37,245 bases of DNA from Gemmatimonadota bacterium (lineage in GTDB: Bacteria > JAAXHH01): the NCBI GenBank assembly GCA_026706345.1, contig JAPOYX010000023.1:1-37245 (forward strand), read 5' to 3'. Below the pieces are notes generated by a model that saw only the letters and a program-made list of their open reading frames with translations, searched no databases and was not told the DNA's origin. This document shows positions 211 through 29,005 of this stretch, piece after piece (the stretch's first letter is position 1; every line of letters begins with the position of its first letter). The position numbers were made by a program, and so were the translations under genes.

Positions 211-336
211 GATTCCGCATGCTCTCCTATGTTTGTTCAACTTTCGGTCTACCGATCACCTTCGGCTTCAGTTGCCCGTCTGATCGGATCCGCTGATTAT
301 CTGCAGGCGATCGTAAACCCTTCGTTCACATCCACC

Positions 337-1344
337 ATGAAAATCAAAACCATCGAAATCGACCAGGCGTCCGTCCTGACGGATTTCTACAATGAGCAAT
401 TCGCGGACATGCCGTACTGCTATCCGGTAACGCCGGATGAATTCGAAACCGGCGTCCTGTGGCATGAGGAACAGGACGGCGAGCCGTACGAGGACCTGTC
501 GGACGAGTCGTTCCTGGTGGTGGAAGACGACGACGGCGCCATTGCGGGTTTCGCCCACGTGGCCATCTGCCGCAGGGGCGAGGAGGATTACCGCATCGGC
601 CTCCATCCGGTCGAAGAGTTGTTGAAGGACTGCATCGGCCTCATCCGGTTCTTTCACTACCGGGCCGGTGCGAGACCGGCGGGCCAGGCGCTCCTGGAAG
701 CGGCGGAAGCACACTTGCGTAGCTTCGGCATAGACCAGATTCGCGCTTTCAGTTACTTCGGATACCGCTTCTACCGCTTCTGTCACGCTTTCCAATCAGA
801 CAGGATGGGCCACGTGGGCGCCCTGCTCAGCATGAACGACTACCGCATAACCCGGGGGATTATCCTCCTCGAACTTCCCGATTTCACCGTACCCGATCCG
901 GTCTTGCCGGACGCTGAAGTTACGACGCGCTTCGACGTCAAGCCCGGACGGGGGAGGCTGCCCAACATGGAGTTCCAGCTCTTCCGCGGAGATCAGTGCA
1001 TTGGACACGGATTCGCGCAGTCGCTGGGAGACTTCTGCCGGTCGCCCCTGGCCCAGGAAACCTTCTACATTCCCTGGTTCTCCATCGAAGGCAGTCCGGT
1101 GGGAGGACGTGTCAGCGAGGGGGACCAGGGGAAGGGGTTCGGACGGTACATGATGGAGGTCCTGCTGCGGGAGATGCGCTGGCTCGGATACCGCCACGCC
1201 ACCACCCAGGCGAACACGGGCAGCCCCCGGCCCATTCTCCTGTACACGAACATGGGGTACCGCGTCGTAGACACCAACTACCAGTATTTCAAGGACCTTG
1301 AGAGGGAGATCCCGCTGGAGGTGTTTAAAGAGGTCGGGTTTTAG
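337..1344 (+). CDS. tandem GNAT-type N-acetyltransferase
   Basis: A 335-residue protein with two GNAT-like halves. The N-terminal half contains a strand-turn-strand FLVVEDDDGAIAGFAHVAI typical of the central GNAT sheet. The C-terminal half carries the acetyl-CoA pyrophosphate-binding loop DQGKGFGRYM (Q/R-x-x-G-x-G) followed by a closing LYTNMGYRVVDTN strand. The layout resembles two-domain acetyltransferases of the mycothiol-synthase type, but the substrate cannot be inferred. The frame is open back to an ATG at 229; I prefer 337 because the residues after it (MKIKTIEID) look like a normal N-terminus and the upstream part is low-quality sequence. No strong ribosome site is seen at either start. 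It lies immediately left of the low-GC defence island. Confidence 0.75.
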   Translation: MKIKTIEIDQASVLTDFYNEQFADMPYCYPVTPDEFETGVLWHEEQDGEPYEDLSDESFLVVEDDDGAIAGFAHVAICRRGEEDYRIGLHPVEELLKDCIGLIRFFHYRAGARPAGQALLEAAEAHLRSFGIDQIRAFSYFGYRFYRFCHAFQSDRMGHVGALLSMNDYRITRGIILLELPDFTVPDPVLPDAEVTTRFDVKPGRGRLPNMEFQLFRGDQCIGHGFAQSLGDFCRSPLAQETFYIPWFSIEGSPVGGRVSEGDQGKGFGRYMMEVLLREMRWLGYRHATTQANTGSPRPILLYTNMGYRVVDTNYQYFKDLEREIPLEVFKEVGF

Positions 1345-1591
1345 CGGTAGTGCCGAAGCGAATGAGTTCACATGCCAACGAGTATCTCCTCCTCGTGAAT
1401 CATGGAGAGCGTTGTATCATTGCCTTTACGAGTCGTACAACTCTCAGTTGATTACACTACCTATTTAGGATGTATTCCCTTATATAAATAAAGGAAATAC
1501 ATCAAGATAACTTGGTCGGATGGAAATATCCGAATAACAACAACCGAACATGAAGTTGGAAAACCACCAGGCCAACACTACTGTACAGCGC
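1345..1591. other. AT-richer intergenic stretch at the left boundary of the island
   Basis: No coding frame with recognisable protein similarity was seen. Composition drops visibly in GC compared with the GNAT gene to the left, with a run such as ttatataaataaag near 1481. It grades into the helicase remains that begin near 1592. No direct repeat, tRNA or integrase marking an island end was found here. Confidence 0.4.
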
Positions 1592-2088
1592 GTTGTACAT
1601 GATAAAATCGTGACAGTAGCACGGGGGCAATGGCATGATTCCGATACACTCGAGTAAACCTGTAAGGCGCTCATGGTCACGGTAGCTTATAAGCTTCTGT
1701 CTCGCGACGCTGAGTCGCGCCTTGTAATTACCGAGACGAGCCGACCGTGGAGTTCGATGGCGATAGCGCGCTGTTCCAACTGGTATACGAAGCACAGTGA
1801 ATCTGTCTGGCACATGTCTTGATCCCGTGCTTGCCGTGCACAACTAGATAGTCGAGTCATTGCCGCATCAGACTACTGCCGTATACGTATCATTACTGCT
1901 CATTCAGCCCCTTCGCTTCCTGCTGCCCAACGATCTCGGCGCCGGAAAGAACATGATGACGGGGCTCCTCATCAAAGGAGTCGATCACCCGAGGCGATCT
2001 TCAGCGCTGCCTAGTCGTCTGCCTAAGTAGTTTTGCGGAGCAGTGGTAGGACGAACTGAACCGAAGATTCCAACTGCCGTGCGAGAAT
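1592..2088 (+). pseudogene. decayed SNF2-family helicase fragment (DISARM DrmD/HepA-like)
   Basis: Reading across frames recovers one ordered helicase N-terminal region. At 1673-1750 one frame gives YKLLSRDAESRLVI. After a 1-base shift near 1750 another gives FDGDSALFQLVYEA, then a TGA at 1798 and ICLAH. After a second shift near 1818 a third gives DPVLAVHN, a TAG at 1845, [13 protein letters not shown] (the Q-motif), [19 protein letters not shown] (a degraded Walker A region) and LLIKG. After a third shift near 1990 the sequence reads [17 protein letters not shown], a TAG at 2047, DELNRRFQLPCEN, and a TAG at 2089. These match in order the start of SNF2-type helicases found beside DUF1156 methyltransferases. 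The Walker A Lys-Thr is now Lys-Asn. At least three frameshifts and three stops make it non-functional. Its 3' part is missing. The segment before 1673 is the least certain. Confidence 0.72.
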
Positions 2089-2100
2089 TAGAAGTTACAG

Positions 2101-2514
2101 AAACTCCCCAAGGCGAAAACACCCAATATCGCGGGTATGGCACAAGCCGGTATCTTAGAAGCGAAGTCTGGCCATATTCGCCTGCGCCAACCAGAGGAAC
2201 TGCCGGAGGACTGGAATTCTAACCTCGACACTCGGCTGACCGCCTGGAAGATGGTCCATTACTTAGTGCGTGTGTTGGAGTCAAGCAGCAAGAGTGCCGC
2301 GGCCGAGTTAACCGTCGTACTTGGTGTCAGAACCGAACTCGCATGCGAGTTGTGTTGTCGATTTTACACACCGTGTGAACTCAAGAAATAGCCAGCCAAG
2401 GCACAGTCTTACAACGACTTGGTGCAGAGCTGGCTGGAGATCAACTACTTGTTGCGAGAGGAACAGAAGTTCGACGCGGAACAAACTACCCTATTCGTCG
2501 GTGAGGCAAATTGA
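2101..2514 (+). pseudogene. C-terminal remnant of a DUF1156-type adenine DNA methyltransferase
   Basis: The frame from 2101 gives a segment with RLRQPEELPEDW, then LTAWKMVHYLVRVLE, then ELCCRFYTPCELKK and a TAG at 2389-2391. The same frame continues without a break as AKAQSYNDLVQSWLEINYLL and ends in TGA at 2512-2514. This is the characteristic tail of DUF1156 methyltransferases (PEELP-W, V-H-L-R-LE, RLY-CE-K, AYN-LV-SW-EI). All catalytic parts (DUF1156 domain, DPPY motif) are missing, so it is 5'-truncated as well as interrupted. It is fused almost directly to the helicase remains, so a multi-kilobase deletion probably joined them. The next gene starts 34 bases after the final stop, as expected inside an operon. 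An 84-residue ORF from 2137 could be called here by software but is probably not a functional gene. Confidence 0.75.
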
Positions 2515-2548: not shown

Positions 2549-5260
2549 ATGGAGATTACGAACAACAGTCCTGCGCATTTCCAAACCAATGCGGTCGGTG
2601 CAGTGTTCCACCGTTGTGCGCTTCAAGTCAACCCGCACCACTACAGTGAGACCTATCGGGGACAGGCAGAACCTGGTGATGCTGCCACGCATGCAGAGGA
2701 CATTGTTAAGAAAGCTCTGGCGCAACGAGTCTCAGTACTGGCGATAACAGATCACAACGATGTGGGCAGTGTGCCGGCGTTTCGGGCAGCGGCAGCAGAG
2801 CGTGGTGTGTATATCTTTCCCGGCTTCGAGTTGTCGTCGAAAGAGGGTGTGCATGTCCTCTGTATCTATCCCCCGGACTCCCATCAGGATCAGCTCGGAC
2901 GTTACCTTGGCGAGTTCGGCATCACCAATACGAAGCGGTCGTCGGATCTCTCGTCGATGAACTTTGTGGACATCCTTACGAAAGTGCGAGAACAGGGCGG
3001 AGTGACCATCGCCGCACATGTGACCAGTGACCAAGGAGGAATGCTTAAGGTCCTGAGTGGGCAGGCCCGGATTCACGCGTGGAGAAACGAACATCTCCTT
3101 GCGATCCAGATTCCGGGTTCGGTGGACGATCTACCGCAGGACCTGCGCCAGATCGTCGTAAACAAGAACCCGGACTACCGTCGAAACGATGCTGCCGAGG
3201 AGAAACTTGCCGTCGCGGCAATCAACGCCAAGGACATCGTCAGACCGGAAGATCTTGAAGACCACTCCGCAACATGCTGGATTAAAATGTCGGAAGTGAG
3301 CATCGAGGGTTTGCGGCAAGCCTTCCTCGACCCGGGCTCACGCATTCGGATCAATCCTAAGGAGGGGAAACTGGAACCTGAGGAACACGCCGAATTGCTT
3401 TCTCTGGCCTGGGAAGGAGGATTCCTGGACGGTGCGAATTTGGGCTTCAACCCTAATCTGAATGTACTCGTAGGCGGACGCGGCACAGGTAAATCCACGA
3501 TAGTCGAGAGCATCCGAGCTGTCCTCGGGCTGGATGCCGTCGGCGATGAAGCGAACAAAGCCCACGAAGGAATCGTCCGATACGTGTTGCGAAACGGGAC
3601 AAAGATTACACTGCGGGTCCGCACCTACAGACCGGCGGTTCGAGACTACTGTATCGAACGAACAATTCCCAACCCTCCTCTCGTCAAGGACGATAAGGGC
3701 GAGGTGTCCAACTTGTCACCAGCGGATATCTTGCCACGCATTGAGGTTTTTGGACAGCACGAGATATCAGAGTTGGCTAAAAGCCGTGAAAAACTCACAC
3801 GTCTACTCGACCGGTTCATGGAACACGACGACGCTACACCTCGTCGCAGTGCCGACGTACGGCGCGAACTAGAAAAAAACAGGCGGAGTATCATTGAGAC
3901 GCAGGCTGAACTGAAACAAATCGAGGAGCGCCTAGCAGCGCTACCGGGACTTGAAGAGACGCTTGTACAGTTTAAGGAAGCCGGACTAGAGGATCGCCTG
4001 AAGGAACAGAGTCTACTAGTGCGCGAAGAACAGATTTTTGTGTCTATACCAGATCGTCTTGCAACTTATCACGAATGCCTGGAGAATCTGAAGCGCGAAC
4101 TCCCCGTCGACCGAACTTTCCTCTCTACCAAAGCGCTCGAGGATCTACCGACGAGAGAGATTCTGGTTCGTTTGAATGGCGTGTTCGAACATCTCGATGC
4201 GGAAATCGCAGCCGTAGTCCAATCGCTGGAATCTGCTTTGCAACGCGCCGAGCGAGGTGTGAATGACGTACGCTCCGAGTGGAATTCTCGCAAGCAGGAG
4301 GTGCAAGCAGCTTACGAAAAGATCCTACGCGAACTGCAGAAGTCGCATGTCGATGGTGAGGAGTTTATCCGCTTACGTCGTCAGATAGAAGGTTTGCGCC
4401 CATTGCGCGAAAGCCAGACATCACTTCGGCGCATGGAGAAAGAGCAGTCCGACCGACGGCGGAAACTGCTCGCCGAGTGGGAGGACTTGAAGGGCAAGGC
4501 GTTTCGTCAATTAGATCGCGCGGCAAAGAAGGTCAACCGGCAGTTGGAGGGTCGCGTACTGGTCGAAGTGACGGCTGCAGGCGATCGAGAGCCTTTGTTC
4601 GAAATCTTGCGTGACGACATCGGTGGCCGACTTTCCGAGGCAATAAATGCCTTGGACGAATTGCACGACCTGTCGCTCACACAGTTCGTGAACGTCTGCC
4701 GAGAAGGAGTGGAGGCCGTAGAGGATACATACGACAACATCCCGCATGCGCAAGCCGAACGTCTGGCACAGGCGGACGTAGGGTTATTGATGCGCATCGA
4801 AGAACTGGATTTGCCAACAACCACGGTGATCCGACTTAATACTGCACAACAGGGTGAGGCACCATCATGGCAGACACTTGAGGAACTTTCCACTGGCCAG
4901 AAGGCGACAGCGGTACTTTTGTTACTGTTGCTCGAATCCGACACACCTTTGGTCGTCGATCAGCCGGAAGATGACCTCGATAATCGCTTTATCACCGAGG
5001 GGGTCGTACCGCGCATGCGCGCGGAGAAACAACAGCGTCAGTTCGTTTTCTCCACGCACAATGCCAACATTCCAGTGTTGGGCGATGCCGAACTTATTGT
5101 TGGACTCACAGCCTCAGGTGAAGCCGAAGGAGGTCACGCACGAATAGCGCCGGAACATGTCGGTTCCATTGACCATCGGAAGGTGTGCGAACTAATTGAG
5201 AAAATACTGGAAGGTGGTAAGGACGCTTTCGAGCGGCGGCGTCGGAAATACGGATTCTGA
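2549..5260 (+). CDS. TrlF-type PHP-AAA (SMC-like) ATPase
   Basis: A 903-residue protein. Residues about 18-165 form a PHP-phosphoesterase-like domain: a RCALQVNPHHY segment, ITDHND at 66-71 and AAHVTSD at 155-161 supply the usual His/Asp metal positions. Walker A is VGGRGTGKST near 308-317. Residues about 430-650 are rich in Glu/Lys/Arg/Leu and predicted coiled coil. The ABC-type signature LSTGQKAT is at 780-787, Walker B LVVDQPEDD at 803-811 and the H-loop STHNAN at 835-840. This is the architecture of TrlF-family AAA-like ATPases, implying an SMC/Rad50-like nucleotide switch driving a phosphoesterase or nuclease-like domain. The frame is open from 2321, but ATG 2549 has AGGAG 7 bases upstream and precedes the first conserved residues. 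It lies between methyltransferase and DUF499 remnants and 21 bases before the AlbA_2 gene. A defence role is inferred from this context. Confidence 0.88.
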   Translation: MEITNNSPAHFQTNAVGAVFHRCALQVNPHHYSETYRGQAEPGDAATHAEDIVKKALAQRVSVLAITDHNDVGSVPAFRAAAAERGVYIFPGFELSSKEGVHVLCIYPPDSHQDQLGRYLGEFGITNTKRSSDLSSMNFVDILTKVREQGGVTIAAHVTSDQGGMLKVLSGQARIHAWRNEHLLAIQIPGSVDDLPQDLRQIVVNKNPDYRRNDAAEEKLAVAAINAKDIVRPEDLEDHSATCWIKMSEVSIEGLRQAFLDPGSRIRINPKEGKLEPEEHAELLSLAWEGGFLDGANLGFNPNLNVLVGGRGTGKSTIVESIRAVLGLDAVGDEANKAHEGIVRYVLRNGTKITLRVRTYRPAVRDYCIERTIPNPPLVKDDKGEVSNLSPADILPRIEVFGQHEISELAKSREKLTRLLDRFMEHDDATPRRSADVRRELEKNRRSIIETQAELKQIEERLAALPGLEETLVQFKEAGLEDRLKEQSLLVREEQIFVSIPDRLATYHECLENLKRELPVDRTFLSTKALEDLPTREILVRLNGVFEHLDAEIAAVVQSLESALQRAERGVNDVRSEWNSRKQEVQAAYEKILRELQKSHVDGEEFIRLRRQIEGLRPLRESQTSLRRMEKEQSDRRRKLLAEWEDLKGKAFRQLDRAAKKVNRQLEGRVLVEVTAAGDREPLFEILRDDIGGRLSEAINALDELHDLSLTQFVNVCREGVEAVEDTYDNIPHAQAERLAQADVGLLMRIEELDLPTTTVIRLNTAQQGEAPSWQTLEELSTGQKATAVLLLLLLESDTPLVVDQPEDDLDNRFITEGVVPRMRAEKQQRQFVFSTHNANIPVLGDAELIVGLTASGEAEGGHARIAPEHVGSIDHRKVCELIEKILEGGKDAFERRRRKYGF

Positions 5261-5281
5261 ACAGATGCGAGAGGGTACGAA

Positions 5282-6625
5282 ATGAATCTAACCGAACTGG
5301 CCGAGTTGATTCACAACGATGAGAATTCCGGTGTTGAATTCAAGCGTGACGACATTACACCACAGAAATTGGCCAAGGAGATGGCCGCGCTACTCAACTT
5401 TGAGGGCGGTCATATCTTGCTGGGGGTAGAGAAGGACAAAAGCGTGTCGGGTTTGACTAGAGAGCGTGATAAAGCCGAGGAGTGGGTAATGGAGGTAGCA
5501 CGTGTGCATCTTCGCCCTGCGGCTATTCCGTTTTGGGAAACACTCGACTGGGGAGACGGAAAAACCGTGGGTATTGTGTCCCTTCCAGTTGACGCACCCG
5601 ACAAGCCATATAAGTACAGACGAGGCTCGGCGTGGGTCACCCAGATACGTGTTGGTACAAATTCGCGTGTTGCGACCGATGAAGAAGAGGCACGCCTGTA
5701 CATGCAGTCGGGACGTCTGCAGTACGATCGAAAACCGATCCCCGGGGCCAGCCTAGATGATTTCGACATGCGTCGGTTGCTGAACTACTTTCGGGATGTA
5801 CGCCGTCAATCTTTTCCCCAAGCGGATGACTACGAAGGCTGGACTCGTCCGCTCGTTAATACCGAATTCATGTACGAACACAACGGACGACCGATACCCA
5901 GTGCGGGCGGACTACTGCTGTTCGGTGTACGACCCAAGAAATACCTACCTCAGGCCGGGATCAGCGCTGTTGCCTATTCGGGTATCGAAAAAGACTACGA
6001 TGCCAAGGAGCGAGCAACGCTGACAGGTGCGGTAGTTTCTCTTTTTCCCGCCACGCATGCCGAAACAGTGCCGGACTATTCGGACTTACCAACAACATTC
6101 ACTGAGGCTGGTAATGTCGTAGAGGTAGGTGTTATTGATCAGGCGATGGACTTTGTCCGCCGCAATACCACGATCGAATCCTCAATCCACAGCGGAGGAC
6201 AACGCTTAGAGCGCTGGGACTATCCAATCGAAGCCATCCGAGAGGCTATCGTTAATGCCATCGCTCATCGAGACTACACCATCGGCGTGATGGACATCGA
6301 ACTATCGATTTACTCGGACCGATTGGAGGTTATTTCTCCTGGACGTTTGCCAAACACGGTCACCGTTGATAAGATGCGTGCAGGTTATCGAGCTTCGCGA
6401 AACGAGCTTATCAAAGAGGTTCTGCGCGACTACCGGTACGTAGAGGCCACAGGTTTAGGCGTACCACGCAAGATAATTGCTGGGATGCGGGCACACAACA
6501 ACACCGAGCCGGATCTTATCGAGGAAGATAGCCGGTTTATCGTGCGCTTGTGGAAACATCGCCACGAAGCCATTGTGGCCGATCATTTTGAAGGAGAGAC
6601 CTATAGTGGCCATCACCAATCATAA
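5282..6625 (+). CDS. AlbA_2 (Schlafen AAA_4-type) and HATPase-like ATP-binding protein
   Basis: A 447-residue protein. The N-terminal AlbA_2 domain is clear: VEFKRDD at 18-24, then KEMAALLNFEGGHILLGVEK at about 32-51. The C-terminal part has the COG2865-type ATPase N-box EAIREAIVNAIAHRDY at 317-332 and LEVISPGRLP further on, ending with TGLGVPRKI. Such proteins bind nucleic acid through AlbA_2 and nucleotide through the GHKL-like fold. Some are annotated as transcriptional regulators and many occur in phage-defence clusters. GAGAGG lies just upstream of the ATG. It follows the PHP-ATPase gene after 21 bases, and its end overlaps the start of the DUF499 remnant by 20 bases, so the genes were translationally coupled. 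The frame is intact, in contrast to the genes around the pair. Confidence 0.85.
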   Translation: MNLTELAELIHNDENSGVEFKRDDITPQKLAKEMAALLNFEGGHILLGVEKDKSVSGLTRERDKAEEWVMEVARVHLRPAAIPFWETLDWGDGKTVGIVSLPVDAPDKPYKYRRGSAWVTQIRVGTNSRVATDEEEARLYMQSGRLQYDRKPIPGASLDDFDMRRLLNYFRDVRRQSFPQADDYEGWTRPLVNTEFMYEHNGRPIPSAGGLLLFGVRPKKYLPQAGISAVAYSGIEKDYDAKERATLTGAVVSLFPATHAETVPDYSDLPTTFTEAGNVVEVGVIDQAMDFVRRNTTIESSIHSGGQRLERWDYPIEAIREAIVNAIAHRDYTIGVMDIELSIYSDRLEVISPGRLPNTVTVDKMRAGYRASRNELIKEVLRDYRYVEATGLGVPRKIIAGMRAHNNTEPDLIEEDSRFIVRLWKHRHEAIVADHFEGETYSGHHQS

Positions 6626-8886: not shown

Positions 8887-10362
8887 TCAACTGTCCATCA
8901 TCATATCGTACAGGTCCTGTTGCCGGTGCATGGCTTCGCGATAGCGGTCCCGGTTCGCCGGATCCGGCTCGTAGGTCTTCCCCATCGGAGCGTCTGCGGC
9001 GGACAGGTCTTCCAGCGCACCCGAAGCCTCCAGCGCCAGCAGCGCGGCGCCTCGGCTCGAGGCCTCGGTCACGGCCGAGGCGGTGATGGGGCGCTCCAGT
9101 ACGTCGGCCAGCATCTGCATCCAGACGGGCGACTGGAGGAGGCCGGCGCCCGATGCGACGATCTCGCCGGAATCCCCGGTGATTGCCCGAAGCCGGCCGT
9201 AGATGTCCGCGAAACAATAGGCGGTGGCCTCCAGGCCGGCGCGCATGACGTCCAGGGGCGTGGTATGCAGCGTCATGCCGGTAATGGACGCCCTTGCGGA
9301 GTCGTGCCAGCCCGGGCTGCGCTCGCCCGCCCAGAAGGGCAGCACCGTGAGGCCGTGGCCGGCCGGCGCCATCCGGGAGAGGGCTTTCTCGACGCCTTGT
9401 TCGTCGCCGAGCCTCAGCGTGTCGCGCATCCAGCCGTAGACGTTCCCGCCGTTGCTCAGGGCGCCGCCCATCAGGATCCTCCGGCGGTCCGACCGGTAGC
9501 ACCACAGGCCTTCGGGGATCGTGAACGCATCGGCGCGCTTCATGACCCGCATGGCGCCGGAAGTGCCCACCATCAGGGCGATGCGGTCCTCGTCCACGCA
9601 GCCGCTTCCGATGTTGTTGCAGGCCCCGTCGCCGATGGCGGGATACCAGGCCGCGCCGGCCAGGACCGGCCAGCGGGCCACGTATTCTTCCTTCGGACCC
9701 CGGACCGGTTCATCCACGTCACTGACGGCGGTAAGTTGCGTCCGTTCCACCGGAAGGGTCGCGAGCGTCTCTTCGTCCCAGTCGCACCGGTGCGCGTTGA
9801 ACAGTCCGGTGCCGGATGCCATGGAGATGCTGCAGGCCGGCGCGCCGAACCACTTCAGGAAGAGATACTCCCCGATGGACATCCACCGTTCCACACGGGC
9901 GAAGCGATCGGGATCGTTCCGGGCGAACCAGCAGATCTTGGCAGGCAGATAGGACGCGTGTAGCACACATCCGGTGCGTTTGTGGGTCGAGGCCGCGTCG
10001 AGACGCCTGCCCAGTTCGGCGATGACCGTCCCCGGCCGTGTATCCGCCCAGCTGATGAGCGGGGTCACGGCACGGTCTCTCTCCACGCCGATCACGTTGT
10101 GCCAGAAGGTGGTCATGGCCACGCCGTCAATGCCGGGATGGCCGCCCGCGGCGCAGAACGCGTCTAGGACCGACTCCACCTCAGCCGCCAGGCGGTTCGC
10201 GTCGATATAGACCCCGCCATCAGGTGTTGTCTCCATGTCGTAGGCTTTTTGAAAGGCGGGGGAGGCGATCCGGGCGGCCCGGTCGAACAGGATCGCCCGT
10301 ACGGACGACGTGCCGATGTCGATGGCCAGTACGCAGGGAGGCTCAATCGTGTCGCGGGGCAT
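8887..10362 (-). CDS. FGGY-family carbohydrate kinase, gluconokinase-like
   Basis: A 491-residue ATP-dependent sugar kinase. The N-terminal phosphate motif is [16 protein letters not shown]. The substrate-side segment [10 protein letters not shown] followed by [11 protein letters not shown] resembles Bacillus-type gluconate kinases more than glycerol kinases. The C-terminal phosphate-2 motif is MVGTSGAMR and the adenosine motif [16 protein letters not shown]. It would phosphorylate a sugar or sugar acid (gluconate, or possibly xylulose) that feeds the pentose phosphate pathway, consistent with transketolase lying directly downstream. Length and domain order are complete. The exact substrate cannot be assigned from sequence alone. 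Confidence 0.88.
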
Positions 10363-10614
10363 GGAAGATGCCTGGCGGTCGGGTCAATGAGAAAACCGCG
10401 TCCTGGTGCTGTCAGGATACATCCAAGAACAACGGGCGCGGATAAAGGCGTCGGGAACGGCTGCAGGCGGTATTATATCGAAGGGCTGTGAGTGTTTCAA
10501 GCCAAAAGCGCTGGCCAAGGAAAGGATTGACAGACGGTCTCCGGAAGTCTTTTTTACAAGCGTTCAACGCGTCACTTCTAAAAAGGGAATACTAGCCAGG
10601 AGAAGCAGCAGCAG

Positions 10615-11640
10615 ATGTCTTCCAGCCTGAAAGAAGTCGCCCGGGCCATGGTCGCCCCGGACAAGGGGATCCTGGCCGCGGACGAAAGCAGTGGTACGAT
10701 TCAGGACAGGTTCGCTGGCATTGGGCTGCCGTCGACGAAGGAGAACCGCCGCGCGTACCGGCACATGCTGTTCACCACCGAAGGCATGGAGGAATTCATC
10801 AGCGGCGTCATCCTCTACGAAGAGACCCTCCGCCAGAAGGCCCTCGACGAAGCCGAAACGCCGTTCCCGGAACTGCTGTCCGGCAAAGGCGTAATTCCCG
10901 GAATCAAGGTGGATACCGGCATCCATGATCTGGCGGGGTTTCCCGGAGAAAAGATTACCGAGGGACTGGACGGCCTGCGCGGGCGCCTGAAAAGATACGG
11001 GAAACTGGGTGCCGCCTTTGCCAAGTGGCGGGCGGTCATTACCGTGGGGCAGGGCATTCCCACGGATGTCTGTATCGACGCCAACGCCCACGCCTTGGCC
11101 CGGTACGCCGCCCTGTGCCAGGAATGCGACATCGTACCGATCGTGGAGCCCGAAGTGCTGATGGACGGCGACCACTCCATCTACCGGTGCGATGAGGTTA
11201 CCGGCGTCGCCCTTCGGCGCGTTTTCGAGGCGCTGGCCGAGCACGGGGTCATGCTGGAAGGGATCGTACTGAAGCCCAGCATGGTCATCTCGGGCTCGGA
11301 ATGCCCCGAACAGGTTTCTGTCGAAGAAGTGGCGCGTCGCACGGTGAACAATTTCCTGCGCAACGTGCCGCGCGAAGTGCCCGGTGTCGCCTTTCTCTCG
11401 GGCGGGCAGTCCTCGGAGATCGCCACGGCGCACCTGAATGCCATGAACGCGCTGTTCAGCGAACTCCCGTGGGAACTCAGCTTCTCCTACGGACGCGCCC
11501 TGCAGGCCGCTCCGCTACAGGCCTGGGGTGGCGATCCGGCCAATTTCGAGTCAGGACAGCAGGCCTTTTACCACCGTGCCATGTGCAACAGCGCCGCCCG
11601 GACCGGCCAGTACAGCAGCGACATGGAAACCGCGGCATAG
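10615..11640 (+). CDS. class I fructose-bisphosphate aldolase (eukaryotic-type family)
   Basis: A 341-residue glycolytic/gluconeogenic aldolase that cleaves fructose 1,6-bisphosphate through a Schiff base. Typical segments: DKGILAADESSGT at about 16-28, IPGIKVDTG, the WRAVITVGQG strand, IVPIVEPEVLMDGDH, and the Schiff-base lysine in GIVLKPSMV (Lys220), followed by FLSGGQS. This is the Schiff-base class I family best known from animals and plants, not the DhnA/FbaB type. AGGAG at 10598-10602 precedes the ATG by 12 bases. It is divergent from the FGGY kinase across 252 bases. The last codons and the stop lie in a 29-bp tandem duplication. The bacterial class I family has the symbol fda in some species, but I leave it open. 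Confidence 0.94.
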   Translation: MSSSLKEVARAMVAPDKGILAADESSGTIQDRFAGIGLPSTKENRRAYRHMLFTTEGMEEFISGVILYEETLRQKALDEAETPFPELLSGKGVIPGIKVDTGIHDLAGFPGEKITEGLDGLRGRLKRYGKLGAAFAKWRAVITVGQGIPTDVCIDANAHALARYAALCQECDIVPIVEPEVLMDGDHSIYRCDEVTGVALRRVFEALAEHGVMLEGIVLKPSMVISGSECPEQVSVEEVARRTVNNFLRNVPREVPGVAFLSGGQSSEIATAHLNAMNALFSELPWELSFSYGRALQAAPLQAWGGDPANFESGQQAFYHRAMCNSAARTGQYSSDMETAA

Positions 11641-11675
11641 TTAGCGGCGACATGGAAACCGCGGCATAGTTAGCG
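11618..11675 (+). repeat. 29-bp perfect tandem duplication across the aldolase stop codon
   Basis: Two adjacent identical 29-base copies, 11618-11646 and 11647-11675, each beginning gcgacatggaaacc and containing the TAG. The first copy encodes the last residues (DMETAA) and the stop; the second lies in the untranslated region. Part of the unit (gcgg) starts again after the second copy. Zero mismatches suggests a recent duplication. Confidence 0.95.
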
Positions 11676-11757
11676 GCGGCGGTGCCTGTTTCGGTGCAGG
11701 TACGCGTCACGATACCCGTTTCCCGACAGCGCTGCCCTCCGGGGACCTCGGCCGGAC

Positions 11758-12858
11758 ATGATGTCCAGACCATCTTATTCCGACATCGTAGCAAACCTGC
11801 CTTCCGTGACCCCCTTCGTGGGTCCCGAGACCATCGAACGACAGCAGGGAAGAACGTTCCGGGTACGCATCGGCGCCAATGAAAGCGCCTTCGGCGTATC
11901 ACCCCGTGCCGCGGCGGCCATGAGCGAGGCCGCGAGGGGCGTCGCCTGGTACTGCGACCCGGAAGGCTATGAGCTGCGGGCGGAACTGGCCGGGATGCAC
12001 GGCGTGGACATCGAGAACGTGACGCTCGGCGCGGGGATCGACGACCTGCTGGGGCTGATTGTCCGCATGTACATGGATCCCGGCGACACGGTCGCCGCGT
12101 CCCTCGGTTGCTATCCCACCTTCGTCTATCACGTAGACGGTTTCGGCGGCAAACTGGAGACCGTGCCCTACCGTAATGACCGCAACGATCTGACGGCGCT
12201 GACGGACCTGGCCGCGAAACGGAAGGCCGTTATCGTCTACCTGTCCAATCCGGACAACCCCACGGGCTCCTATTACGGCAGCAACGCCATCGGGGATCTC
12301 CTGGACCGCGTGCCGCCGGACTGCCTCTTCATTCTCGACGAGGCCTACCTGGACTTCGTACCTCCGGACACCATTCTTCCCGTCGACGTGGACGATCCCC
12401 GGCTGGTCCGGGTGCGCACCTTCTCCAAGGCCCACGGGATGGCCGGCGCCCGGGTCGGATACGCCATCGCCCATGAGGACGTCATCCGGACCTTCGACAA
12501 GGTCCGCCTGCATTTCGGCGTGAGCCTGGTAGCCCAGGCCGGCGCGCTGGCCTCGCTCCGCGACCCGGAATTCGTCGCGGGTGTGGTGAAAGCCGTGGAG
12601 GAAGGTCGTCGGGACTACTACGAACTGACCGCGGAGGCTGGCGTATCGGCCCTGCCCTCCCAGACCAATTTCGTGGCCTTTGATTTCGATACGGGCGAGA
12701 GGGCCGGCGCCGTGATGAACACGCTGATCGAACGGGGCGTGTTCCTGAGAAAACCCGCCGCGCCGGGCCTGGACCGCCTCGTCCGGGTTACGGTGGGCAC
12801 GCCGGAGGACCGGGCTACCTTCTCGGAGCTGTTCCGGGACGTCATGAACGGGATGTAA
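11758..12858 (+). CDS. histidinol-phosphate aminotransferase-like PLP enzyme
   Basis: A 366-residue fold-type I aminotransferase. It shows the HisC hallmarks: NESAFGVSP near residue 41, YLSNPDNPTGSYY (cofactor Asn-Pro), FILDEAYLDF (Asp binding the pyridine nitrogen), and RTFSKAHGMAGARVGY with the Schiff-base lysine at 224. The family transfers an amino group between glutamate and histidinol phosphate or related aromatic or phosphorylated substrates. There are no other his genes nearby, so a paralogue with another substrate is equally possible. Two adjacent ATG codons (11758, 11761) could start it and no strong ribosome site distinguishes them. It follows the aldolase by 117 bases and precedes a PhyH gene. 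Confidence 0.86.
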   Translation: MMSRPSYSDIVANLPSVTPFVGPETIERQQGRTFRVRIGANESAFGVSPRAAAAMSEAARGVAWYCDPEGYELRAELAGMHGVDIENVTLGAGIDDLLGLIVRMYMDPGDTVAASLGCYPTFVYHVDGFGGKLETVPYRNDRNDLTALTDLAAKRKAVIVYLSNPDNPTGSYYGSNAIGDLLDRVPPDCLFILDEAYLDFVPPDTILPVDVDDPRLVRVRTFSKAHGMAGARVGYAIAHEDVIRTFDKVRLHFGVSLVAQAGALASLRDPEFVAGVVKAVEEGRRDYYELTAEAGVSALPSQTNFVAFDFDTGERAGAVMNTLIERGVFLRKPAAPGLDRLVRVTVGTPEDRATFSELFRDVMNGM

Positions 12859-12962
12859 GCTGCGGGCCTGGGGGAGTCGCGGCCTTGGGGGCCGGGGGCT
12901 GGCATCGCAGTACGAGCAAAAGCAGGCAACCACGACGCACACCGGGAGAGGACGCTCCAACT

Positions 12963-13700
12963 GTGGTCGATCTCGGATTCTTCAAACAAAACGGCTACGT
13001 AAATCTCGGACAGCCTTTTTCCGCGGAAGAGCTTAGCCGCTTCATCGAACTGTACGACCGCGACCGATCGGAAACGAATTACTTCTGGCGGCCCATCGCC
13101 TTCGACGGGCATCAGAGCGTAAACTGCGAGCCGCTGATTTCCACGCCGGAATTCGACGGGCTGATCCGCCACCCGTCGCTTATCGCCGCCATCGAGACCA
13201 TCCTCGAAGGACCCAGTTGCCTCGCGGAGGCCTGTCTGCGCCACATGGCGCCGCACGAGGGCGGCCCGGTGGAGGTCTGGCACCGGGACAGCAGGCATAT
13301 GTCCGACCGGCCTTATCGGTGCGGCTACCTCCACATGATGCTATACCTGTCCGACGTAAGCGAAGACACCCACTGCTTTTCCATATCACCGGAACCCTGC
13401 GACGGGCTCATCCTTGAAATCGAGGAACAGGTCCAAGAGCGGGGCAAGGTTCACCTACACGGTCCGGCCGGCACGGTCATACTCTTCAACCTGTCCGTGG
13501 TCCACGCCGCCACCGTGCGAAAAACCCCGCACGAACGCAAGTCCGTTCAGGTCTATTACGGCCATCGGGACGGCCCCGTCCTTAGCCAGCACACTACCAT
13601 CCCCACAGCTCTCTGGCGCGATCACCTCGATCCGGAAGTACGCGGTTTCTACAGCCTGCTGAACAATCGCTCGCGGTTGTTCGCCGAGGCGTTCGGCTAA
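12963..13700 (+). CDS. phytanoyl-CoA dioxygenase (PhyH) family protein
   Basis: A 245-residue Fe(II)/2-oxoglutarate dioxygenase. It opens with FFKQNGYVNLG, typical of PhyH proteins, and carries the iron-binding facial triad: HRD in VEVWHRDS (His107, Asp109) and His181 in NLSVVHAATV, with Arg192 nearby as the likely 2-oxoglutarate anchor. Members hydroxylate diverse small molecules, so the substrate is unknown. I start at GTG 12963, preceded by GGGAGAGG about 12 bases upstream, because residues before it from ATG 12885 look non-coding. Its stop overlaps by 4 bases the stop of the convergent PLP gene. Probably co-transcribed with the HisC-like gene. Confidence 0.85.
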   Translation: MVDLGFFKQNGYVNLGQPFSAEELSRFIELYDRDRSETNYFWRPIAFDGHQSVNCEPLISTPEFDGLIRHPSLIAAIETILEGPSCLAEACLRHMAPHEGGPVEVWHRDSRHMSDRPYRCGYLHMMLYLSDVSEDTHCFSISPEPCDGLILEIEEQVQERGKVHLHGPAGTVILFNLSVVHAATVRKTPHERKSVQVYYGHRDGPVLSQHTTIPTALWRDHLDPEVRGFYSLLNNRSRLFAEAFG

Positions 13701-14764
13701 CGGTCCGGATCCGCCCTATTCCAGGGCACTACCGACAGCCATGGACCGAGCTCGTCCCCATAAGCGAAGATGGCCGGCAGACCACCGGTATGGATGAAAA
13801 GTACGCGGCCGCCCGCTGCGATCACCCCTGAACGCACATGGTCGATCAGGCCCGCCATCGTCTTGCCCGTGTACACCGGGTCGAGGAGCAATCCCTCCTG
13901 CCGGGCCGCCATGGCGATCGCCTCGCGCACCGCGTCGTTGAGCCGGCCATAGCCCGGCGCGAGCACCCCGTCGAATGCCTGGACGTCGTCCCCATCGAAC
14001 ACTTCCGGCCGCTCGATCATCGCCGCCAGTTCCGACGCGACCTGCCTCACCCGCGCCATCTGACTGCCGCCATCGCGCCGCACGCAGATGCCATACACCG
14101 GTACCTCCTTGCCCAAGGACCGGAGGCCCACCAGCAGCCCCGCGTGGGTCATCGCGCTGCCCGTGGGACTGACCACGGCGTCGAATTCCAGGTCGAGGTC
14201 TCGGGCCTGCGCCAGGATCTCTTCGGCGGCGAGCACGTAGCCGAGCGCGCCGAGCGGCGGATGGAAGGGAGCGAGATGGATCACGTAGGGCCGCCGGCCT
14301 TCGTCCGCGAGCGATTGGGCGAGAAGGTCCAGCGACGCGTCCGCCGCGGCCTCGTCCTCACCGACCGGGAAGGTATGCAGCTTCGCGCCGAAGAGCCGGT
14401 CGAGCAGCACGTTTCCGGATGCCCGGTAAAGCGCGTCCACGTCGGGCACCCGTTCTTCCAGCTGTACGTGGACTTCCATGCCAAGCTTGCGTCCGGCAGC
14501 GGCGGCCACGCGGACGTAGTTCGACTGCACCGCGCTGGTGATCAGCAGGGTGTCGGCGCCCTGGGATCGTGCTTCGCCGAGGGGAAACTCGATCTGGCGG
14601 ACCTTGTTGCCGCCCATGGCCAAACCCGTGCAGTCGTCGCGCTTGATCCACAGCTCGATGCCTAGGGACGTACCCAGGCGCGGCGCGGACTCCAGCGGCG
14701 TAGGCGCGTGGCCGAGCCGGACTCGCGGGAACTTTTCGATGGCTTTGGATAGTGGAGTGGGCAT
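13697..14764 (-). CDS. D-cysteine desulfhydrase / ACC deaminase family PLP enzyme
   Basis: A 355-residue fold-type II PLP enzyme. Key segments: LWIKRDDCTGLAMGGNKVRQ with the probable Schiff-base Lys54, then LLITSAVQSNYVRVAAAAG (phosphate-side Ser/Asn), VVSPTGSAMTHAGLL (glycine-loop equivalent) and a C-terminal LFIHTGGLPAIFAY typical of the DcyD/AcdS family. The family degrades D-cysteine to pyruvate, sulfide and ammonia, or opens the ring of 1-aminocyclopropane-1-carboxylate; sequence alone does not separate these. The gene is last in a minus-strand run, 111 bases after the GH32 gene, and may have its own promoter. Confidence 0.88.
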   Translation of the reverse strand: MPTPLSKAIEKFPRVRLGHAPTPLESAPRLGTSLGIELWIKRDDCTGLAMGGNKVRQIEFPLGEARSQGADTLLITSAVQSNYVRVAAAAGRKLGMEVHVQLEERVPDVDALYRASGNVLLDRLFGAKLHTFPVGEDEAAADASLDLLAQSLADEGRRPYVIHLAPFHPPLGALGYVLAAEEILAQARDLDLEFDAVVSPTGSAMTHAGLLVGLRSLGKEVPVYGICVRRDGGSQMARVRQVASELAAMIERPEVFDGDDVQAFDGVLAPGYGRLNDAVREAIAMAARQEGLLLDPVYTGKTMAGLIDHVRSGVIAAGGRVLFIHTGGLPAIFAYGDELGPWLSVVPWNRADPDR

Positions 14765-24469: not shown

Positions 24470-27400
24470 TTATGACTTCTGCGCACCGGCCTTTTCACGG
24501 GTCCGCCGGCCGCTCAGATACGCCTTGAGCTTCGGCGGAAAATCCCGCTTGACCAGTTCCTGCCGCAGCGCCCACTGTTCTTCGGCCGCTACCGGAGAGG
24601 TCTCCCTGATTTCGCCGCCTTCCATGATCAGGATCGGTTCGCCGTCCCGGTAGAGGATCCGGTTGCTGGTGATGCCGGGCACGCGCCGCCCGGGCGTGAT
24701 GATTCCGACCAGGTTCAGGGGGTCGGCGGCGCTGATGGCCACGAGGGTGCCCTGTTTCTCCTTACGCCGGATGCTGCGCAACAGGGTCACGGCTTCGCCC
24801 AGGGCGTACTGCTCGCCCCAGACCCCGTTCACGAACCGGCCGCCGCGGATCTCTCCCCGGGCTTCCATCCGCCGAAGCACCCGCACGAGGTCCCGCCACG
24901 GCGGCGAGGCGTTCTCCCGCTCCGTCAGGCGCCGGAACACGACGCCGTACCGGGCGAGCGCGACGCGGGCATAGGCCTCGAGATCCTCTTCCGCGTTGCC
25001 TTCCGCCGGCACGCGGGACGTCAGACCCCACCGTCCCGCCGTCGACAGGTCGAAGGGATTCCGGCGTTCCCGTCCCCGGCGGGACTCCCGGTGACGCGAC
25101 GGCACCAGCAGGGCCCGGAGGCCCGCAAAACTGTCGGAGGTCACCATCCCCGCCGATACCAACTCCGCCACGGCTTCCTCGGTGTGGGTGCGAAGGAGGC
25201 CGGACTGCGCGGTGATGTCGTCGAAAAACACCGCGCCCTGCCGGGTCATCAGGTCCAGTACCGTCTTAGCGTAGGTGGAAAGCGGAAGTTCCTCGTCGCC
25301 GGCCGCGCCGCTCAGGGACATCCACAGCGATCGGTTCATGCGGTCCACGATGGCGATGGGCGTCGACCGGATCGGACCGGCCGTCTTTCCGTTCTCACCG
25401 TTCGACCGGTGGGGACGAAGCCGTCCCCAGGCGTACTTGCCGGAAAGGCACAGACTGTCGAGCCAGGCGTAGTCGTAGTCAGTGACGCGGGACGGCAGGA
25501 TCTCGCTCTCCCAGGCCGCGGCCGGCGCCTCCACGCCTTCCAGCATGCGGAGCACGGCGGCCACGGCGTCGGCCCCCTTGAGCCGGGTGTCGGGCGCCAG
25601 GTGATGCCAGGTAAAGAGGAACTGCATGAAGTCGGCGGGTGAAACGGGCTGGATCTCCCGGCGCAGTTTGGTGATCGTGAAGCGGTGGATCCTCGCCAGC
25701 AGCCGGCGCTCGCACCATTCCAGCGCGCCCGCGTCCGGTGAAAACTGTCCCCTGAAGACGAACCCCTCGCTCTCCAGGGCAATCAGCGCCTGATCGACCT
25801 TGCCGACCGGCAGGTCGATGGACCCGGCCAGGCCGGCCGCCGTGACCGGACCCAGCGTCTCCAGCCTCCCCCGAATCAGTTCCACCAGGGCGTACTCTTC
25901 CAGGGCGTACTCTTCCGTGGCGGATGCGTCGGCCAGCCCGGCCTGCCTGGCCGTGGCCTGAAAACCTTTTTCCAGGTTGCCTCTCACGTCGTCCGGGATT
26001 TCCTCCGCCGGTTCGAACCGCCCCTGCGGATGCAACCGCTCGAAATGGATGCGCCGTTCCAGGGGCGTCCACAGGCGCTTCCCGCCCTCCGTCACGAGCG
26101 TGGCGGCCCGGCGGTCGCCTTCCAGAACGGCGTAGTACTCCGTCCAGCTCCCGAACTGATCGCCCTTTCGCCCCTCCTCTTCCGTGACATACCCCGCGAG
26201 CACCAGGGCGTCGTGGAGTTCGTCCGGACTGCGCACTTCGGGCCAGGCATCGCTTCGCACGGTGTCGATGGCTTCGGGGTCCAGGCGGCCCAGGTCGCCC
26301 GCGACCGCGGGGTCGAGCCAGCGGCGGTTCCGGACGGCGTTCGTCCGCCGCTCCTCGAGGGGCGCGTCGTCCAGGAAGGCATAGGGACGGGCGTTGAGGA
26401 TCTCCTCGGCCATGGGCGAGGGCTCGCGGAGGTCCCTGGCGTGCACGTTCATGTCTCCGGACTTCATCGTCTTCAGGACAGTCTCCAGGGTCTCGACGTC
26501 CATGGCCTCGTGCAGGCAGTCCTCGATCGTCTGGCTGACCAGGGGATGGTCCGGCACCTCCCGGTCGCCCGCGATGTTCTCCAGGCACGCGATCTGGTCG
26601 GGGAACACCTGGGCGATCAGGTCCTCGGCCACGGACCGCTGAATCTGCGGCGGCACCCGGTCTCCGCCCCTGCGGCGCAGCACGGCCAGGGCGGTCGACG
26701 CGTTCCAGCGCCAGCGCACTTCGAACATGGGCGCGTCGAGGAGGGCCTGGACCAGGACCTCCCGGACCGTCTTGGCGTTCAGGTAGCTGAAGACGTCGTC
26801 CAGGGGGAAGCTGTGGGTGGCGCCTAGGGACAGGATGATGGAATCCTCGTTCGCCGCGGCCTGCAGCTCGAAGTTGAAGGTCCGGCAGAAACGCTTGCGC
26901 AGGGCCAGCCCCCAGGCCCGGTTGACCCGGCTGCCAAAGGGGCTGTGGAGCACCAGGTGCATGTCGCCGGCCTCATCGAAGAACCGTTCCGCCACCAGGT
27001 CCTTCTGGGAGGGGATGACGCCGAGGGCCGCCTTGGTCGCGCCCAGGTATTCCGCGATCTGCGTCGCCGCCACGTGGGAGACGCCCGCGGACGTCATCAG
27101 CCAGTCCTCGGCCTCCCGTTTCCATTCCGGATCGAGCTTCCCCTGACTATCGCGTCCGGGCGTCGGCCCAACCTCTTCACCGCCATCCTTTGGCGGCCCC
27201 GTCTCTTCGCTGCCATCCTTCGGTGGACCGAACCCCACGTCCATCCTGCTCGCGACCTCTTCCCTCAGCCGCGACAGCGAAGCGGAGAGTTCGACCGTCC
27301 TCCCCGGCGCCTCGCCGAACCAGAAGGGCATGGTGGGCGGCAGGCCCTGGGCGTCCTCGACCCGGATCTTGCCCTTCTCCACGCGCAGGATCCGCCACGA

Positions 27401-29005
27401 GTTGTTCCCCAGCTGCACGATGTCCCCGGCCGTGCTCTCGATGGCGAAGTCCTCGTTCAGCGTGCCGATGAAGGTCTCCGTGGGCTCCATGATCACGTCG
27501 TAGTCGAACTGGTCGGGAATCGTCCCGCCCGACATCAGCGCGTTGATCCGGGCCCCCTTGCGGCCCCTGACCGCACCGTTCATGAGGTCCCGCTGGATGT
27601 AGGCGTGCTTGCGGCCCCGGCGCGGGGTATAGCCCTCGGCCAGCATGGACACGACGCCGTCGAATTCCTCCCGGGTCAGATCGCGATAGGGGTAGGCCCG
27701 CCGAACGAGATGATAGAGGTCGTCCTCCTGGAAATCGCAATTGGCCACCTCGGCGATGATCTGCTGGGCGAGCACGTCGAGCGGCTGTTCGGGGATGATG
27801 ATCCTGTCCAGTTCGCCCCGCCGCACCGAGTCCATGATCGCGGCCGCCTCCACCAGTTCGTCGCGCGTCAGCGGGAACAGGCGCCCCTTCGGCGTACCCG
27901 TGATCGTGTGGCCCGACCGGCCCGCCCGCTGAATCAGCGTGGCAATGGCCTTTGGGGAGCCGATCTGACAGACGAGATCGACGGAACCGATGTCGATCCC
28001 CAGTTCCAGGGAGGCCGTGGCCACGAGGGCCTTCAACGCGCCGGCCTTCAGCCGCTGCTCGGCGTCGTGGCGGTGCTCCTTCGACATGCTGCCGTGGTGG
28101 GAGGTGACGTGCTCGGTGCCGAGCCGTTCGCTGAGGTGACGCGCCAGCCGCTCCGACATGCTCCGCGTCGTGACGAAGATCAGCGTAGTCTCGTGCCGGA
28201 GAATGAGTTCCTCGAGGCGTTCGTACACCTCCTCCCACACTTCGTTCGACATGACGGCGCCGAGCGGTGAGCGGGGGACTTCGATCTTGAGTTCGAGTTT
28301 TCGCCGATGCCCGGTGTTGAGGATCTTGCAACCCTTCCCCTTATCGTAGGCGGCGCCGGTGAGAAAGTGGGCGATCCGGTCGATGGGTTTCTGCGTGGCG
28401 GAGATGCCGATACGTGTGAGCGGGCTGCTGGTAAGCCGTTCCAGGCGCTCCACCGAAAGGGCCAGGTGCGAGCCCCGCTTGTTGCCCACCAGCGCGTGGA
28501 TCTCGTCGATGATGAGCGTGTGCACGTTGGGCAGAATCCGGCGCCCCCCCGCGCTCGTGAGCAGCAGGTACAGGCTCTCCGGCGTCGTCACCAGGATGTG
28601 GGGCGGATGCTTTGTCATGGCCGCCCGTTCGCTCGTGGGCGTGTCGCCCGTGCGTACAGCCACGCGGATGGGCACGTCCGGCCAGCCGCGCTCCTTGAGT
28701 ATCGTCTTGATGCCCTTGAGCGGGACCTGCAGGTTGGCGTGGATGTCGTTGCTGAGGGCTTTCAGAGGCGACACGTAGACGATCTGGGTGCCCTCCTCCA
28801 GCGTACCGTACTGCCCCTGGCGGACCAGGTCGTCGATGGAGGACAGGAAGGCCGCCAGCGTCTTGCCGGAACCCGTGGGCGCCGCGATCAGGGTGTTCTG
28901 CCGCTGCTTGATGACGGGCCAGGCCCGCTTCTGGATAGCGGAGGGCTCGTCGAACTGTCTGTCGAACCAGGCGGCAACGGCAGGATGGAAGAGGTCGTTG
29001 GTCAT
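24470..29005 (-). CDS. lhr: Lhr-type ATP-dependent DNA helicase, full length
   Basis: A 1511-residue superfamily 2 helicase, the length of bacterial long Lhr. The N-terminal core has the Q-motif region [12 protein letters not shown], Walker [19 protein letters not shown] box [12 protein letters not shown], motif Ia/Ib segments, and motif [16 protein letters not shown] winged-helix and Lhr-specific beta-barrel region follows to about residue 880, then the large C-terminal extension. Long Lhr proteins act in DNA repair; mycobacterial Lhr is a 3'-5' translocase. Two repeats lie inside: a linker with two 10-residue GPPKDG-type units near residue 600 and an EEYAL duplication near 1035. The gene is flanked by a TATAAT-containing upstream region and is probably monocistronic. 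Confidence 0.95.
25886..25915 (-). repeat. 15-bp perfect tandem duplication inside lhr
   Basis: The unit cagggcgtactcttc occurs twice without mismatch (25886-25900, 25901-25915). On the coding strand it doubles five residues, giving [10 protein letters not shown]. The reading frame is preserved. Confidence 0.93.
27175..27234 (-). repeat. two 30-bp imperfect tandem repeats inside lhr
   Basis: Copies at 27175-27204 and 27205-27234 encode [10 protein letters not shown]- and [10 protein letters not shown]-type decapeptides in a hydrophilic linker of Lhr. The copies differ at several bases, so this is older than the 15-bp duplication. Confidence 0.85.

What the first reader, a model, noticed from the sequence alone, without database searches (positions are those of the whole stretch)
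2549..6625. PHP-AAA (TrlF-like) plus AlbA_2/HATPase protein as a two-gene candidate defence module
An SMC-like ATPase fused to a PHP phosphoesterase-like domain, paired with an AlbA_2 nucleic-acid-binding ATPase, has the makings of a sensor-effector system: one nucleotide switch with a nuclease-like head, one DNA/RNA-binding regulator. Both keep all visible motifs inside a decayed neighbourhood, a sign of continued selection. SMC-like and AlbA_2-containing systems such as Menshen are known in outline, so this may be a relative with a PHP effector; I could not verify that relation.
Basis: partly seen in the sequence, partly recalled or inferred. Interest (0 to 1): 0.7.

Follow-up and report, generated by a model that had tools for sequence, protein, structure and literature searches.

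The report
Stranded two-gene defence cassette (trlF–trlG)
This is an intact pair of genes, known in Photorhabdus as a 'temperature restriction' locus, that elsewhere sits as a movable cassette inside many unrelated bacterial anti-phage operons; here it outlived the defence operon around it, which suggests the Photorhabdus locus is really a stranded immune module.

Summary
Both genes are real and intact. Gene 1 (2549-5260) belongs to NCBIfam family TrlF (PHP domain plus SMC/Rad50-like ATPase); gene 2 (5282-6625) has the AlbA_2 + HATPase architecture of TrlG. The pair equals trlF-trlG of the Photorhabdus 'Temperature Restricting Locus' (2020), not Menshen. New here: (1) relatives form a discrete ~3.9-kb cassette embedded in Hma, BREX, type I and III restriction, DUF1156/PLD-helicase and even Wadjet operons; DNA similarity between some copies stops at the cassette edges while the host operon differs. 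(2) The 'decayed neighbourhood' is the collapsed Hma host: broken HmaA and HmaB fragments directly upstream; no intact Hma elsewhere in the genome. (3) The Photorhabdus locus looks stranded too: its trlR is 83% identical to the ORF heading a type I operon carrying trlF-trlG. (4) Roles are probably reversed: this TrlF clade lost the PHP HxH motif, while TrlG has a Schlafen/SAMD9-like RNase fold with both catalytic glutamates, and published escape mutations hit trlG, never the larger trlF. Most likely TrlF senses or restrains, TrlG arrests growth. Trigger and substrate are inferred; this copy carries Lys where Schlafens have the third catalytic Asp.

The parts
1550..2121 (+). Decayed N-terminal part of HmaA (helicase of the Hma/DUF499 BREX-related system), several stops
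   Evidence: HmaA model PDLC00659: 1550-1756 (positions 2-70, 5e-4), 1747-2121 (68-192, 5e-8), 1815-1976 (91-144, 4.6e-17); tblastn with L061 HmaA E 2.4e-7
2098..2478 (+). Decayed C-terminus of HmaB (DNA methyltransferase), one internal TAG
   Evidence: HmaB model PDLC00661 positions 841-967, E 2.5e-25; ORF 2137-2391 hits PDLC00660 at 1.6e-19
2549..5260 (+). trlF: PHP-like domain (about 17-265) with non-canonical QxN in place of HxH, then SMC/Rad50-like ATPase with Walker A at 309-316, coiled coil about 429-665, signature 781-784, Walker B/D-loop 804-812, H-loop His837
   Evidence: NF045780 519 bits; Pfam; alignment A3; AlphaFold2 model pLDDT 88, Foldseek to SMC/JetC/Rad50 and to RNase AM/EndoQ PHP domains
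5282..6625 (+). trlG: Schlafen-type AlbA_2 domain (14-130; Glu14, Glu19 conserved) plus GHKL ATPase (HATPase_c_4, 338-423; N-box Asn325)
   Evidence: Pfam; alignment A4; model pLDDT 89; Foldseek to SAMD9 tRNase domain, SLFN11/13/14 and histidine-kinase/PDK folds; profile match to Schlafens

Best explanation
The pair is a trlF-trlG (TRL) cassette: an embedded backup or guard toxin module of anti-phage operons, stranded here after its Hma host operon collapsed. Shown: intact pair; cassette behaviour across unrelated host operons; broken Hma remnants in the window. Known from Photorhabdus: TrlG-dependent growth arrest. Inferred: TrlF, an SMC/Rad50-like ATPase with a remodelled and probably non-catalytic PHP domain, senses infection or inhibition of the host system (nucleotide state, DNA ends, or the partner complex) and restrains TrlG or is bypassed by it; TrlG, a Schlafen-type RNase coupled to a GHKL ATPase, then attacks RNA (probably tRNA) and stops growth and phage production.
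For: Family identity and the same architecture in Photorhabdus TrlG (AlbA_2 14-128, HATPase_c_4), where trlG point, stop and IS mutations or deletion of the operon relieve growth arrest at 36 C (PMC7554251). Embedding: HmaB-FG-HmaC (L046, L080, L097), PglX-FG-PglZ-BrxL (L034, L083, L088, L091), HsdM-HsdS-FG-HsdR (L033), Mod-FG-Res (L077), DUF1156-FG-PLD helicase (L044), JetA-FG-JetB-JetC-JetD (L096). Cassette edges: L078 vs L114 align only over 9976-13854 although the hosts differ (type III vs BrxH-like); L092 (BREX) vs L094 (Wadjet) likewise. Tree: 8 host labels need 16 changes; the window lies in a supported clade of Hma/DUF1156-helicase loci. trlF and trlG co-inherit, r = 0.90, 0 of 2000 permutations. 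Photorhabdus trlR is 83% identical to the ORF heading the L033 type I operon, with hsdM/hsdS missing between trlR and trlF. TrlG fold, Glu14 41/41 and Glu19 40/41. HxH lost in the clade, Photorhabdus included. No trlF escape mutants: about 9e-9 under equal target size per codon if trlF were also required (my calculation on the published table).
Against: 20 of 43 loci have no recognised host system within 1 kb, so embedding is not obligatory. TrlF without TrlG exists (19 scorable loci), so TrlF must do something alone. The window TrlG has Lys51 where Schlafens have the third catalytic Asp. The growth-arrest data are for heat, not phage. No activity was measured.
Confidence: 0.55

Rival explanations
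1. TrlF is the effector: like Ppl, its PHP domain degrades DNA when nucleotide levels fall or DNA ends appear, and TrlG regulates or assists.
For: TrlF shows partial similarity to Ppl (200 bits), a PHP ssDNA exonuclease gated by NTPs and 3' ends (PMC12904381); TrlF occurs without TrlG beside restriction genes (L037, L087, L104); D68, H69, E94, H102, H157, D229 remain conserved.
Against: HxH is replaced by QxN and the DxH His is missing in this clade; the Ppl cut-off (1000 bits) is not met; Photorhabdus escape mutants never hit trlF.
Confidence: 0.17
2. A toxin-antitoxin or addiction pair: TrlG is a toxin held off by TrlF, and persists after host collapse because it is hard to lose.
For: Recurrent survival of intact trlF-trlG beside broken host genes (window, L041, L042, L045, L050, L072); toxicity assigned to TrlG in Photorhabdus; tight coupling.
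Against: TrlF alone is common; strong preference for sites inside defence operons; the whole operon can be deleted in Photorhabdus without harm (PMC7554251).
Confidence: 0.15
3. A housekeeping growth or temperature regulator unrelated to phage defence, as originally described.
For: The only published phenotype is temperature restriction, with promoter induction on temperature shift (PMC7554251).
Against: Patchy distribution across many phyla, cassette exchange between unrelated defence operons, presence on conjugative plasmids.
Confidence: 0.05
4. In this genome the pair is a functionless leftover on its way to decay (compatible with the family-level explanation above).
For: The host operon is gone; Lys51 at a catalytic position.
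Against: Both frames intact over 4 kb while the adjacent 1 kb is full of stops; dN/dS about 0.1 for the pair with L041; L041, also without an intact host, shares Lys51.
Confidence: 0.15

Closest known systems
Temperature Restricting Locus trlR-trlF-trlG of Photorhabdus laumondii (PMC7554251)
   Same: Same two protein families, order and spacing; Photorhabdus TrlF carries the same LQVN replacement of HxH (L100)
   Different: About 33% (TrlF) and 41-42% (TrlG) protein identity; no trlR found here; the window pair comes from the Hma-associated branch; phage role untested in both
Schlafen-minimal histidine kinase-wHTH effectors linked to BREX and DUF499 BREX-related (Hma) operons (PMC12839542)
   Same: TrlG fits that effector class and that genomic setting
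   Different: In the parts of that paper read or searched the PHP-SMC partner is not described (no hit for PHP); restriction types I/III and Wadjet hosts are outside its scope
Ppl anti-phage protein
   Same: PHP domain fused to an SMC-like ATPase
   Different: Single gene; far below the Ppl cut-off; HxH lost in the window clade
PrrC in type I restriction operons and PARIS
   Same: Positional analogy: a growth-arresting module embedded with a restriction or BREX system, guarding it
   Different: Different effectors (anticodon nuclease / TOPRIM); TrlF similarity to AriA is weak
Menshen
   Same: SMC-like ATPase plus AlbA_2-type protein, in outline (from memory)
   Different: No Nsn-named model among the matches shown; no third gene here

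Membership tests
TrlF family (NF045780) | Whole-protein score above curated cut-off (350) | tested here: met
   519 bits, full length
TRL pair (trlF-trlG) | AlbA_2 + HATPase_c_4 protein directly downstream of trlF | tested here: met
   about 42% identity to Photorhabdus TrlG
TRL pair (trlF-trlG) | trlR upstream | tested here: not met
   No match in the window to the 79-aa trlR homologue
TRL pair (trlF-trlG) | Growth arrest dependent on TrlG | not testable with these tools
   Needs expression
Ppl | NF042955 cut-off (1000 bits) | tested here: not met
   200 bits
Canonical PHP phosphoesterase | Motif I HxH and motif IV DxH | tested here: not met
   LQVN and NAKDI instead
Schlafen-type RNase | Fold of the Schlafen/SAMD9 nuclease domain | tested here: met
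   Foldseek E 3e-4 to SAMD9 tRNase domain, SLFN11 9e-4; profile match SLFN13 9e-7
Schlafen-type RNase | Catalytic Glu, Glu, Asp | tested here: inconclusive
   Glu14 and Glu19 present; third position Lys51 here, Asp in 34 of 41 relatives
Hma system | Intact HmaA, HmaB, HmaC | tested here: not met
   Only broken HmaA/HmaB fragments here; no HmaC in the genome
Menshen | Three genes NsnA, NsnB, NsnC | tested here: inconclusive
   No Nsn-named model shown for either protein (TrlF list cut at 25; presence of such models in the library not verified)
PARIS | AriA ATPase with TOPRIM AriB | tested here: not met
   AriA match weak (E 1.4e-6); no TOPRIM domain in the partner

The most novel reading that the evidence does not exclude
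TrlF-TrlG is a general plug-in immune module that moves as a unit between unrelated defence operons (methylation-based and SMC-based alike), guards them with a Schlafen-type RNase gated by a PHP-SMC sensor, and outlives them; the Photorhabdus temperature restriction locus is one such stranded plug-in misfiring with heat.
Probability: 0.4. Interest if true: 0.75.

Novelty: new variant of a known kind. Interest (0 to 1): 0.58.

Why it matters
It ties an unexplained bacterial growth-temperature phenotype to antiviral immunity, gives TrlF/TrlG (named but, in the papers found, without an assigned mechanism) a testable function, and adds a promiscuous two-gene cassette to the known embedded modules such as PrrC and PARIS. 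A module that serves Hma, BREX, type I/III restriction and Wadjet must sense something these hosts share or something about the phage, which narrows the search for its trigger.

Tried and rejected
Menshen kinship: no support. Mapping the Photorhabdus escape mutations onto the window: only S16, V35, A36 and R126 fit the residue numbering of the homologue at hand (P. akhurstii, L100); the others did not match at any single offset, so no enrichment claim is made. A strict 'guard of methyltransferases' model was dropped because Wadjet operons also host the cassette. dN/dS against relatives other than L041 is saturated. Promoter/terminator scans were at chance level. A sweep for host fragments beside the seemingly solo loci found only L045 and L082, but this search misses decayed ends: it also missed the HmaA N-terminal fragment in L041, found by eye and by comparison with the window. 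The relatives in viral contigs are mostly distant TrlF-like proteins without TrlG.

Full report
What is there. Two intact, co-directional genes lie at 2549-5260 and 5282-6625, 21 bp apart, in a stretch of 53-55% GC against about 64% in the neighbouring metabolic genes; third-position GC is 0.58 and 0.54 against 0.85 for the transketolase next door, so the stretch looks imported. Gene 1 is TrlF (NF045780, 519 bits, cut-off 350). Gene 2 has the AlbA_2 + HATPase_c_4 architecture.

Known counterpart. PMC7554251 describes trlR-trlF-trlG in Photorhabdus laumondii as the Temperature Restricting Locus. TrlG there has AlbA_2 at 14-128 and HATPase_c_4; escape mutants growing at 36 C carried trlG changes and none in trlF; deletion of the whole operon also relieved the block. 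A Photorhabdus copy (L100) was recovered independently here and carries the same remodelled PHP motif as the window.

The decayed neighbourhood. It is a collapsed Hma operon: HmaA fragments (1550-2121, several stops), then the HmaB C-terminus (2098-2478, one TAG), then trlF. No intact HmaB and no HmaC was found in the genome. The closest relative, L041 (78% identity in TrlF), keeps only a fragment resembling the HmaA N-terminus in front of trlF, while L097, in the same part of the tree, keeps HmaB upstream and HmaC downstream. Similar leftovers flank the pair in L042 (HmaB), L045 (DUF1156 methylase), L050 and L072 (PLD helicase).

A cassette. In 80 loci from GTDB genomes plus plasmids, trlG follows trlF by -46 to +42 bp in nearly all pairs. 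At least 23 of 43 scorable pairs have a defence subunit or fragment within 1 kb, 10 on both sides. Host types: Hma, BREX, type I and III restriction, DUF1156-PLD helicase, Wadjet I and II. In loci with long flanks, 15 of 25 have such a subunit starting within 1 kb, against 4 of 25 in the 5-7.5 kb bin. The query set was drawn from these loci after PADLOC had labelled them, so the counts depend on that choice and are not an unbiased rate. L078 (type III host) and L114 (BrxH-like host) align over 9976-13854 only, the extent of the two genes, at 84% DNA identity; L092 (BREX) and L094 (Wadjet) align over 3.9 kb only. On the TrlF tree the host labels need 16 changes where 7 is the minimum, and the window sits in a supported group of Hma and DUF1156-helicase loci (quick method, some long branches elsewhere in the tree). 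Distances of TrlF and TrlG correlate at 0.90.

Photorhabdus revisited. The 79-aa ORF heading the Citrobacter type I operon (L033: 79-aa ORF, hsdM, hsdS, trlF, trlG, hsdR) is 83% identical to trlR of Photorhabdus and 87% to that of Shewanella (L098); in both of these hsdM and hsdS are absent and trlR adjoins trlF. PMC7554251 itself noted methyltransferase genes between trlR and trlF on a Yersinia plasmid. The simplest reading is that the temperature locus is a type I operon reduced to its control gene and embedded cassette, although assembly in the opposite direction is not excluded.

Roles. PHP motif I is HxH in outlying TrlF relatives (L080, L089, L116, L118, L120) but QxN in the window clade; the DxH histidine is missing too. 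TrlG models well (pLDDT 89) and matches the SAMD9 tRNase domain, Schlafens and histidine-kinase-like ATPases. The Schlafen 13 catalytic residues E205, E210 and D248 (numbering from established knowledge) align with Glu14, Glu19 and position 51; position 51 is Asp in 34 of 41, Lys in the window and four others. TrlF models as an SMC/Rad50/JetC-like ATPase with a PHP-fold head. If loss of either gene could relieve growth arrest with equal mutability per codon, seeing 16 trlG and no trlF events would have probability about 1e-8, so TrlF is probably not needed for the toxic step. This rests on the published table and on treating distinct alleles as independent events.

Conclusion. I rate an embedded, now stranded, TrlG-effector module as most likely (0.55). 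Schlafen effectors near BREX and Hma operons were reported in 2026 (PMC12839542), and embedded defences in general are a known theme, so the kind is known; the constant PHP-SMC partner, the cassette edges, the Wadjet and type III hosts and the reinterpretation of the Photorhabdus locus were not found in the papers read. A preprint on defences embedded in immune systems (Payne et al. 2024, cited in PMC12629846) could not be read and may overlap.

Noticed in passing
L096:1-10370; L094:6853-13920: trlF-trlG sits inside Wadjet operons (JetA-F-G-JetB-JetC-JetD; JetA2-JetB2-F-G), a system without a methyltransferase.
   Followed up: partly
L100:9640-9913 and L033:7867-8143: Photorhabdus trlR is homologous to the first ORF of a plasmid type I restriction operon that carries trlF-trlG.
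   Followed up: yes
L035-L039, L087, L104: TrlF occurs without TrlG, some copies beside ISP-type or type I restriction genes, also on plasmids; its function alone is unexplained.
   Followed up: no
L003 (G009), L005 and L019 (G003): Other genomes of the window's genus carry more distant TrlF-TrlG pairs; the one in G003 has a broken TrlF and the one in G009 keeps the HxH motif.
   Followed up: no
window 229-1344: Intact 371-aa ORF resembling a GNAT acetyltransferase (by eye), between the window start and the decayed Hma remnant.
   Followed up: no
window 24470-29005 (-): 1511-aa ORF, not examined.
   Followed up: no
L034:13144-15630: Avs2-like ORF close to the BREX operon hosting trlF-trlG on a Vibrio plasmid.
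   Followed up: no
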